Assembly: GCA_014730235.1 (NCBI GenBank)
Contig: WJIO01000180.1
Coordinates: 1 to 16,761, forward strand
Direction of reading: 5' to 3'
Source: Candidatus Poribacteria bacterium
Lineage (GTDB): Bacteria > Poribacteria > DTPJ01 > WJIO01
Length of the DNA: 16,761 bases
Shown here one piece after another: positions 972 to 16,761 of this stretch (its first letter is position 1; every line of letters starts with the position of its first letter). Position numbers and translations under genes: made by a program. The notes below the pieces were generated by a model, which had not been told where the DNA came from, did not search any database, and saw nothing but the letters and a program-made list of their open reading frames with translations.

Positions 972-986
972 GTAACTATAATTTAT

Positions 987-1106
987 GGCTCTTCCGGGTT
1001 TAGTGTGGTAAAGATAAGAAATTTCTTTATGCTGTCATTCCTGCGAAAGCAGGAATGACAAGCTGAGGGAATTTTCAATTATAACCACGCTGAACCCGGA
1101 AGAACC
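987..1106. repeat. Interspersed palindromic repeat, copy R1 (full length)
   Basis: 120-bp element. Left end 987-1008 begins GGCTCTTCCGGG; right end 1085-1106 ends CCCGGAAGAACC and is nearly its inverted complement. The centre is a perfect 12-bp-stem hairpin at 1033-1060 (TGTCATTCCTGC, loop GAAA, then the complement). The right arm from 1055 matches 15724-15775 with 3 differences in 52 bases. It lies between two minus-strand genes and could also end transcription coming from the ceramidase pair. There is no coding capacity, so it resembles a MITE or other non-autonomous element; the mobilising enzyme is not in the window. Confidence 0.85.
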
Positions 1107-2870: not shown

Positions 2871-2888
2871 GCTTCAATCCAAGCATAA
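2871..2888. repeat. Short inverted repeat upstream of the ceramidase-domain gene
   Basis: ATGCTT, 6-nt spacer, AAGCAT. It sits just upstream of the possible TTG start of the ceramidase gene. It could be an operator-like site or chance; no regulator is encoded nearby. Confidence 0.25.
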
Positions 2889-2910
2889 AATTTATGTCCG
2901 TGAAAACTTT

Positions 2911-2985
2911 GGCTCTTCCGGTTTGAGTATGGTAATAATTTGAAAATTTTCTCAGCTTGTCATTCCTGCGTTCGCAGGAATGACA
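2911..2985. repeat. Interspersed repeat, copy R2: left arm plus central hairpin
   Basis: Left end 2911-2932 (GGCTCTTCCGGTTTGAG...) is followed by an arm that is the inverted complement of the R1/R4 right arm (AAAATTTTCTCAGCT compared with AGCTGAGGGAATTTT). The 28-nt hairpin is at 2958-2985 with loop GTTC. The normal right arm is missing; an unrelated 88-bp module follows directly at 2986. The copy is therefore a mosaic with its breakpoint at the hairpin edge. Confidence 0.8.
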
Positions 2986-3073
2986 TAGAAATATATTCTT
3001 TGAGCATTTTCATCTGTTTCTTCATGCTGAATTCTTATAAACATTGGTTTTAGAGATTTTTTAGAATTCTCAG
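2986..3073 (+). repeat. 88-bp repeat module M4, first copy
   Basis: Begins TAGAAATATATTC right after the R2 hairpin and matches 16674-16761 with one difference over 88 bases. Both copies follow the same 28-nt hairpin (4 differences within the hairpin loop and flank). The true right edge is unknown because the second copy is cut by the window end. It has no open reading frame of note. Confidence 0.85.
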
Positions 3074-3148
3074 TATTTGTTACTCCGTTATTCGCAATAA
3101 CACAGGGTTGTAAAATTTATGCTTGGTGCTTCAATCTGATATATAAAG

Positions 3149-11198: not shown

Positions 11199-11336
11199 GG
11201 TTCTTCAGGGTTTATTGTGGTAAATATGAAAACCTGTATAAGTTTGTCATTCCTGCGAAAGCAGGAATGACAAACAGAGGATATTTTTTCTTATTAGATA
11301 ATATTTTATTATTTCCACACTAAACCCGGAAGAAGC
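11199..11336. repeat. Interspersed palindromic repeat, copy R3 (full length, diverged arms)
   Basis: 138 bp. Left end 11199-11220 (GGTTCTTCAGGGTTTATTG...), right end 11315-11336 (CCACACTAAACCCGGAAG...). The hairpin at 11245-11272 is identical in stem and loop to that of R1. The sequence between ends and hairpin differs from R1, so the ends and core are conserved while the fill is not. It lies between the glycosidase-like gene and the lipoprotein gene, both on the minus strand. Confidence 0.85.
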
Positions 11337-15654: not shown

Positions 15655-15666
15655 CTTATTTCTTTA

Positions 15667-15727
15667 ATATTTCTCAAAATTAACTAAAACCAGATATTGT
15701 TCTGCTTAAAGAGACACTAGCAAATGA
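15667..15727. repeat. Repeat module M5, first copy, in the araB leader
   Basis: About 61 bp from ATATTTCTCAAAATTAAC to CACTAGCAAATGA. It matches 16572-16631 with one indel and a few substitutions clustered near the middle. It is joined directly to the R4 right arm; the join falls in AATGACA, the 3' base of the central hairpin of other copies. Confidence 0.75.
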
Positions 15728-15775
15728 CAAGCTGAGGGAATTTTCAATTATAACCACACTAAACCCGGAAGAGCC
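15724..15775. repeat. Interspersed repeat, copy R4: right arm only
   Basis: 52 bp matching 1055-1106 of R1 with 3 differences, ending at the right terminal repeat 15754-15775 (CCACACTAAACCCGG...). The left arm and hairpin are replaced by module M5. The terminal base abuts the truncated gene at 15776, and the element supplies that gene's stop codon (15748-15750). On the minus strand it contains a perfect TATAAT (15747-15752), which could act as a -10 box towards araB, though no good -35 lies before it. Confidence 0.8.
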
Positions 15776-16022: not shown

Positions 16023-16259
16023 GGAATTATCTCTTATTTTTTAGGTTACAGAATGATTACTCCTGTTTTTGTGTCCGGTATCAATAATAACATTAATTAT
16101 GACTAATTTCTATAGTTTATTTCTCGTCTCTCTATTTTAAGATGTTTTCATGCTGTTTCAGACCAGAATTACAGCACAAACTCTTTCCAACTCTGAATTC
16201 AAAGATTTTCCCTCAGTTATTGATTGTAATCGTTAAAAAATGAAAAATGTGTTTAGAAT
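16023..16259. other. AT-rich intergenic stretch
   Basis: I see no gene, convincing promoter or hairpin here. It may contain decayed sequence of the gene remnant at 15776-16022, since six further sense codons precede its ATG before a TAA at 16041-16043. Confidence 0.3.
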
Positions 16260-16452
16260 AATACCCTTACAATGATGGTAAATTACAAAATATGTCATTC
16301 CTGCGAAAGCAGGAATCCAGTCTCTATGCGGATCTACTGAATTCCTGCTTTAAGCTTTTTGAAAAAGCTTGAGCAAAAAGGAATAAGAGTTTCGCAGGAA
16401 TAAGATGCTTAGAAAGTTTTTAAATTGTTTCCACACTCAATTCGGAAGAGCC
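16260..16452. repeat. Interspersed repeat, copy R5, degenerate and internally interrupted
   Basis: The right end 16431-16452 (CCACACTCAATTCGG...) is clear; the left end near 16260 is badly decayed. The left hairpin TGTCATTCCTGCGAAAGCAGGAAT is at 16293-16316. A second core ATTCCTGC (16341-16348) / GCAGGAAT (16394-16401) is split by about 45 bp containing a perfect palindrome AAGCTTTTTGAAAAAGCTT at 16352-16370. The copy thus carries two hairpin cores, one with an insertion in its loop. Confidence 0.7.
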
Positions 16453-16571
16453 ATAAAATGTTTTGAAATTTTCATATCTACAAACCGATGTTTTAGTTAA
16501 TAAACGACTATATACGTTGGGTTATAATATATAAACATCGGGAAAGGAGATACAGTAAAAGATATTTACTG
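16453..16571 (+). other. Intergenic stretch with orphan promoter/ribosome-like signals
   Basis: TATAAT at 16523-16528 and AAAGGAGA at 16543-16550 stand in the order of a promoter and ribosome site, but no start codon follows at usable distance. An inverted repeat CAGTAAA/TTTACTG follows at about 16553-16571 and then repeat module M5. It could be the leader of a gene displaced by the repeat, or chance. Confidence 0.3.
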
Positions 16572-16645
16572 ATATTTCTAAAATTAACTAAAACCATATG
16601 TTGCAGTGCTTAAAGAGACACTAGCAAATGAAAATGCTATCAGGC
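16572..16645. repeat. Repeat module M5, second copy, with link to hairpin
   Basis: 16572-16631 repeats 15667-15727. Here it is followed by 14 bp (AAATGCTATCAGGC) and then an intact central hairpin rather than by the right arm. Confidence 0.75.
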
Positions 16646-16673
16646 TGTCATTCCTGCTTTTGCAGGAATGACA
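16646..16673. repeat. Central hairpin of repeat copy R6
   Basis: 28 nt: TGTCATTCCTGC, loop TTTT, complement. The stem is identical to R1, R2 and R3. It is followed by module M4 exactly as in R2. Confidence 0.8.
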
Positions 16674-16761
16674 TAGAACTATATTCTTTGAGCATTTTCA
16701 TCTGTTTCTTCATGCTGAATTCTTATAAACATTGGTTTTAGAGATTTTTTAGAATTCTCAG
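16674..16761 (+). repeat. 88-bp repeat module M4, second copy, cut by window end
   Basis: Matches 2986-3073 with one base difference, in the same orientation, and runs off the right edge. The pair makes a long direct repeat about 13.7 kb apart. Confidence 0.85.

What the first reader, a model, noticed from the sequence alone, without database searches (positions are those of the whole stretch)
987..1106. Interspersed repeat family with terminal inverted repeats and a conserved central hairpin
At least six related copies occur in 16.8 kb (987, 2911, 11199, 15724, about 16260, 16646). The consensus is close to a single long palindrome of about 120 bp: ends GGCTCTTCCGGGTTTAG..., arms containing AGCTGAGGGAATTTTC, and core TGTCATTCCTGC-GAAA-complement. 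Ends and core are conserved while the fill varies, which suggests selection or trans-mobilisation of ends plus core. All copies lie between genes or beside a broken one. It may be a MITE-like element of an unseen transposase, or a REP/dRS3-like structural repeat.
Basis: partly seen in the sequence, partly recalled or inferred. Interest (0 to 1): 0.6.

Follow-up and report, generated by a model that had tools for sequence, protein, structure and literature searches.

The report
ISL3-type MITEs sharing a REP hairpin
This bacterial genome is littered with tiny transposons that cannot move by themselves; the one found here has the ends of the ISL3 transposon family, and its centre is a known kind of bacterial hairpin that also sits at the centre of two unrelated tiny transposons and marks where pieces of all three are swapped.

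Summary
The repeat is real and is a MITE, but the six window copies are not one family. Two (987-1106, 11199-11336) are complete elements with 22-bp inverted ends and 8-bp target duplications (one perfect, one 7/8). The others are chimeras or belong to other families that share only the central hairpin.

In 1.34 Mb of the genome, 132 paired "type I" elements occur; 83 of 130 have at least 7/8 matching flanking octamers (null 5.4, maximum 12). The same ends flank 1.45-kb insertion sequences in Actinobacteria that encode ISL3 transposases and have perfect 8-bp duplications, so I assign type I to ISL3 trans-mobilisation. This fragmented MAG shows only three ISL3 fragments and no intact copy with these ends.

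The core, TGTCATTCCTGC-N4-GCAGGAATGACA, is a CGTC-1/dRS3-like REP palindrome. It also lies at the centre of two MITEs with different ends and 5-6 bp duplications. Of 181 classified cores, 33 join arms of different families; none has the same arm on both sides (about 32 expected). Some chimeras are explained by insertion of type I into another MITE followed by core-to-core deletion.

ISL3 MITEs, REP palindromes and mosaic repeats are each known; their fusion at one shared core is a new variant.

The parts
979..986 (.). left copy of the 8-bp target duplication TAATTTAT
   Evidence: identical to 1107-1114
987..1106 (+). complete type I MITE, 120 bp: end 987-1008, arm IA, core 1033-1060, arm IB, end 1085-1106
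1033..1060 (.). CGTC-1/dRS3-like palindrome TGTCATTCCTGCGAAAGCAGGAATGACA
   Evidence: 566 copies genome-wide; fits the CGTC-1 definition in PMC3733652
1107..1114 (.). right copy of the 8-bp target duplication TAATTTAT
2911..3073 (+). chimera: type I end and arm (2911-2957), core 2958-2985, type III arm and end (3045-3073)
11199..11336 (+). complete type I MITE, 138 bp, core 11245-11272; flanks AAATTTTT / AAATTTTC (7 of 8)
15666..15775 (+). chimera without core: type III arm (about 15666-15725) joined to type I arm IB and end (15754-15775)
   Evidence: left boundary approximate
16226..16452 (+). chimera: type II end (16226-16244) and long arm, compound core about 16293-16404 with nested palindromes, type I arm IG and end (16431-16452)
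16569..16761 (+). complete type III MITE: end 16569-16596, core 16646-16673, end 16733-16761 (contig end)

Best explanation
The 987-1106 repeat is a non-autonomous transposable element (MITE). An ISL3-family DDE transposase acting in trans recognises its ~22-bp ends (GGYTCTTCCGGGTTNAGTGTGG), moves it into AT-rich intergenic DNA and leaves 8-bp target duplications. Its centre is a CGTC-1/dRS3-like REP palindrome that is not specific to this MITE: the same core lies in the middle of at least two other MITE families with different ends and 5-6 bp duplications, so the palindrome is copied passively by whichever transposase moves its carrier. Because hundreds of near-identical cores exist and type I inserts into AT-rich DNA, including other MITEs, recombination or slippage between cores joins arms of different elements. 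This yields chimeras, some of which keep matching outer ends and duplications. Elements with the same arm on both sides are absent, which I attribute to loss of long perfect palindromes. Shown by sequence: ends, duplications, ISL3 type of the ends, shared core, chimeras, absence of same-arm pairs. Inferred: trans-mobilisation in this organism, core-to-core deletion as a joining step, palindrome instability as the reason for unlike arms.
For: 8-bp duplications: 50/130 perfect, 83/130 at least 7/8 against null mean 5.4 and maximum 12, with a peak only at 8 bp. The same ends flank 1446-1449-bp elements in Actinobacteria with perfect 8-bp duplications; two of their proteins were scanned and are ISL3 transposases. 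Published ISL3 IS and ISL3-assigned MITE with GGCTCTTC ends and 8-bp repeats: PMC6305408, PMC11448079. Core shared with type II (5-6 bp duplications in 19/31, null means 0.66 and 0.30) and type III (10/10 assessable). 33 of 181 classified cores join different families (19 at the strictest threshold) and 0 have identical arms against 31.9 expected. Nested chimeras with intact outer duplications: L143 TATTC, L139 TTAAAT. Ends without core and core without ends occur in relatives of the same phylum.
Against: No intact ISL3 copy with these exact ends is in this MAG; three fragments lie at contig edges, and the one end that can be read there (GGTTCATCCGGTTAATGCGTAG) is similar but not the same. Relatives with the ends show no ISL3 protein. 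Many chimeras lack the outer end predicted by nesting, so a second joining route is needed. Chimeras come from a short-read MAG without read support; 21 of 33 share only a 26-bp core, which makes misassembly unlikely but not excluded.
Confidence: 0.78

Rival explanations
1. The core is itself mobile: a REP-type transposase (IS200/IS605-like Y1 enzyme) inserted it separately into the centre of each MITE family.
For: REP dimers inside longer palindromes are described in other bacteria (PMC3733652). One Y1 transposase gene is in the genome. The core occurs in relatives without the type I ends.
Against: No clean empty site was found: the core-less type II and III elements look like deletions at short overlaps (AAT, TCAT). 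CGTC repeats are not associated with Y1 genes in the published survey (PMC3733652). A single Y1 gene is little for hundreds of cores; its flanks were not examined here.
Confidence: 0.15
2. A site-specific recombinase acts at the core and exchanges arms, as proposed for phage Nf transposase at neisserial dRS3.
For: Chimera breakpoints lie at the core. dRS3 is the target of phage Nf, and recombination between dRS3 copies by its enzyme has been suggested (PMC3898611, PMC4471427).
Against: No IS110/Piv-type DEDD transposase in the own genome (PF01548; 91.6% complete MAG). Nested insertion plus core-to-core deletion explains several chimeras without it. Other recombinase types were not searched.
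Confidence: 0.1
3. The repeats are kept as functional RNA or DNA structures (terminators, mRNA stabilisers).
For: The consensus folds into a long hairpin (-75.9 kcal/mol as RNA). Elements are almost all intergenic.
Against: Gene orientation around elements matches background (same 62%, divergent 32%, convergent 6% against 63/28/9), with no excess between convergent genes. Target duplications and chimeras indicate mobile DNA. No Rfam family matches. ORF calls were crude and there are no expression data.
Confidence: 0.08
4. The driver is an IS1595-family transposase, not ISL3.
For: 8-bp duplications alone are not diagnostic (family knowledge), and IS1595 proteins occur in relatives that carry similar ends.
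Against: IS1595 (PF12762) is absent from the own genome, and the IS1595 loci fetched from relatives have no convincing matching ends. Matching ends in Actinobacteria flank ISL3 genes.
Confidence: 0.04

Closest known systems
187-nt MITE of Microcystis aeruginosa assigned to ISL3 (PMC11448079)
   Same: Ends starting GGCTCTTCG, 8-nt direct repeats, hairpin-forming, mostly intergenic, no transposase of its own
   Different: 9-nt imperfect ends and a different interior; no shared REP core or cross-family chimeras are described in the passages read
ISL3-family insertion sequences, e.g. ISArsp7 (PMC6305408) and the Kocuria, Actinomyces, Brevibacterium and Schaalia elements found here
   Same: GGCTCTTC ends and 8-bp duplications; the actinobacterial copies match the MITE end at 20 of 22 positions, its two variable positions counted as matches
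   Different: About 1.45 kb with a transposase gene; no REP core
CGTC-1 REP palindromes (PMC3733652)
   Same: 8-bp stem ATTCCTGC, 4-nt loop, TGTC/CGTC head; dimers with CCA tails inside the larger elements
   Different: The common 28-bp core has a head on both sides and no tail, and sits at the centre of MITEs with target duplications
Neisserial dRS3 repeats and intergenic mosaic elements, NIMEs (PMC3898611)
   Same: A 20-bp ATTCC..GGAAT palindrome in hundreds of intergenic copies, associated with interchangeable longer repeats
   Different: Here the arms end in transposon inverted repeats with target duplications; there RS units form arrays and dRS3 is the target of phage Nf. The sixth base pair of the core also differs

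Membership tests
MITE of the ISL3 family (type I) | short, no transposase gene, terminal inverted repeats | tested here: met
   mostly 120-186 bp, paired 22-bp ends
MITE of the ISL3 family (type I) | 8-bp target duplication | tested here: met
   50/130 perfect, 83/130 at least 7/8, null 5.4
MITE of the ISL3 family (type I) | ends match an IS that encodes an ISL3 transposase | tested here: met
   actinobacterial IS with the same ends; two transposases confirmed
MITE of the ISL3 family (type I) | autonomous partner with the same ends in the same genome | tested here: inconclusive
   three ISL3 fragments at contig edges, no intact copy
MITE of the ISL3 family (type I) | transposition in trans observed | not testable with these tools
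   needs a mobility assay
CGTC-1 REP | 8-bp stem with AT pairs in first and second position, 4-nt loop | tested here: met
   ATTCCTGC-N4-GCAGGAAT
CGTC-1 REP | CGTC or TGTC head at one end | tested here: met
   TGTC in most copies, CGTC in some
CGTC-1 REP | CCA tail at the other end | tested here: inconclusive
   present in the dimeric forms, absent from the simple 28-bp core, which has a head on both sides
dRS3 (strict) | ATTCCC-N8-GGGAAT | tested here: not met
   own core is ATTCCT..AGGAAT; the strict form occurs in relative G003
GTAG REP | GTAG motif at one end | tested here: not met
   core is flanked by TGTC/GACA
IS1595 MITE | IS1595 transposase in the genome and matching ends | tested here: not met
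   no PF12762 in own genome; no convincing ends at relatives' loci
dRS3 site-specific recombination | Piv/IS110-type recombinase present | tested here: not met
   no PF01548 in own genome

The most novel reading that the evidence does not exclude
CGTC/dRS3-like palindromes, for which no dedicated transposase is known, spread by sitting at the centre of unrelated DDE-transposon MITEs and act there as exchange points that build new mosaic elements. The poribacterial and neisserial mosaics would then be instances of one general phenomenon.
Probability: 0.35. Interest if true: 0.6.

Novelty: new variant of a known kind. Interest (0 to 1): 0.42.

Why it matters
CGTC-type palindromes occur in several phyla, and a dedicated survey concluded that they lack a dedicated transposase (PMC3733652). 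Here one genome carries hundreds, most of the sampled ones at the centre of elements with three different end types and two classes of target duplication. That gives a concrete, testable route for their spread. The 33 cross-family junctions also offer a natural record of how short palindromes reshuffle mobile DNA.

Tried and rejected
IS1595 as driver: absent in own genome, no matching ends at relatives' loci. ISL3 in the end-bearing relatives: not found. A pattern search for ends followed by ATG gave only more MITE-like ends and cost a search. The ISL3 C-terminus at C391 with a type I-like end about 300 bp downstream was judged a neighbouring MITE half, since the IS has its own likely end at the stop codon. 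ISL3 loci in G055 and G001 show no matching ends. IS110/Piv recombinase: absent. Rfam: no hit. Empty sites as proof of core insertion: the core-less forms look like microhomology deletions. The first 0.73 Mb came mostly from contigs known to hold hits; the rest came from three runs of consecutive contigs (first 20 kb of each; C74 and C201 skipped because they had been fetched before). Arm classes were drawn up from the first part of the same sample that was then counted.

Full report
What is there. The window is the whole of contig C104 of a 5.53-Mb, 451-contig MAG. Named loci whose coordinates coincide with its same-phylum relatives (L232 with G029, L243 with G054, L270 with G004) are Candidatus Poribacteria, so I take the host to be a poribacterium. 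The best genome-wide matches to 987-1106 run over nearly its full length at 91-95% identity. The core occurs 566 times and the end 367 times on each strand at two mismatches or fewer; reversed-pattern controls give 0.

Ends and target duplications. In a 1.34-Mb sample, type I ends (at most 5 mismatches) occur 381 times against 3 in the reversed control and pair into 132 elements. Perfect flanking direct repeats number 50 of 130 at 8 bp, 6 at 7 bp, 1 at 6 bp and 0 at 9-12 bp; 83 match in at least 7 of 8 positions against a shuffled mean of 5.4 and maximum of 12. These octamers are 90.5% A+T. This is the signature of DDE transposition with an 8-bp stagger. The sample was not random: the first 0.73 Mb came mostly from contigs known to hold hits.

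Which transposase. A scan of bacterial genomes with a degenerate form of the end found complete 1446-1449-bp elements in Kocuria carniphila, Actinomyces, Brevibacterium and Schaalia with this end on both sides and perfect 8-bp duplications (CCAAATTG, ATTATACC, CTTTAACG, GAGTAAGG). Two of the proteins, from Kocuria and Actinomyces, were scanned and are ISL3 transposases (PF01610 E 4.8e-55 and 1.8e-55; NF033550 above cut-off). Published precedents agree: ISArsp7 (ISL3, ends GGCTCTTCGCGG.., 8-bp repeat; PMC6305408) and a Microcystis MITE with GGCTCTTCG ends and 8-nt repeats assigned to ISL3 (PMC11448079). The own genome has three ISL3 fragments, each at a contig edge, as expected for multicopy IS in a short-read assembly; none is shown to carry the MITE's ends.

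The core. TGTC-ATTCCTGC-N4-GCAGGAAT-GACA fits the CGTC-1 REP definition for stem, loop and head (PMC3733652). Larger type I elements (163-186 bp) carry a head-to-head dimer with CCAG tails around a spacer, and the size classes 120/141/162/183 reflect further palindromes nested in the core. In the same phylum the two modules occur apart: G001 and G003 have 45 and 172 core matches but no type I ends, while G004, G007, G029 and G054 have type I-like ends but no core matches. In G003 the palindrome is embedded in different repeated flanks.

One core, three MITEs. The core also lies at the centre of type II elements (GTAATCGTTAAAAAATGAA ends; perfect 5- or 6-bp duplication in 19 of 31) and type III elements (ends CTGATATTTCTAAAATTAACTAAAACCA and CTGAGAATTCTAAAAAATCTCTAAAACCA; 5-6 bp duplication in 10 of 10 assessable). 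Of 181 cores with both arms classified, 33 join arms of different families; the count falls to 25 and 19 at stricter thresholds. No core has the same arm on both sides, against 31.9 expected by random pairing. Elements multiply as units, so these are not independent trials, but it holds across 14 distinct type I combinations. A further 41 of 222 paired cores had at least one unclassified arm.

How chimeras arise. In several cases a half type I element lies inside a type II or III element whose outer ends survive, and in two of these the outer duplication is perfect (L143 TATTC, L139 TTAAAT). The simplest reading is insertion of type I into an AT-rich arm followed by deletion between the two cores. 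Other chimeras lack the outer end, so another route, such as recombination between dispersed copies, is needed too. Core-less forms show short overlaps (AAT, TCAT) typical of slippage at hairpins. The absence of same-arm elements fits instability of long perfect palindromes; this is inference. Twenty-one of the 33 chimeras share only a 26-bp core, too short to mislead a typical short-read assembler, but no reads could be checked.

Function. Elements are almost all intergenic (4 of 132 midpoints in ORFs, 113 expected; crude ORF calls), but the orientation of neighbouring genes matches background, which gives no sign of a terminator role. I conclude they are most likely selfish or neutral. The novelty lies in the combination, not in any single part.

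Noticed in passing
window 2873-2910 and about 3110-3130; L112 10264, L115, L119, L135, L148: Several type I elements share outer flanks (..ATCAGAAGTTTT / AAAGTTTTCACGGATATAAATTT..), so a type I copy seems to have been carried along inside a fourth repeated element.
   Followed up: partly
window about 16350-16395; L112, L133, L145: A further long palindrome (GAAACTCTTATTCCTTTTTGCTCAAGCTTTTT and complement) is nested in the core loop, sometimes with halves from two versions.
   Followed up: partly
L150 about 190-270; L138 about 10620: Another palindromic repeat (CCCCCTTTCCCAAAGGGGGATTTAGGGGGATT) lies near cores.
   Followed up: no
G000:C236:3450-3809 (L212): Single IS200/IS605-type Y1 transposase gene; whether it is flanked by REP palindromes was not examined.
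   Followed up: no
L081, L089, L093, L098, L232: Relatives carry 250-950-bp elements with similar ends (GGCTCTTCAGAGTTAAGTGTGG) and related interiors without a long ORF between them: other probable non-autonomous elements.
   Followed up: partly
sample-wide, core loops: The commonest loop is GAAA, giving GCGAAAGC, known from memory as an unusually stable DNA mini-hairpin.
   Followed up: no
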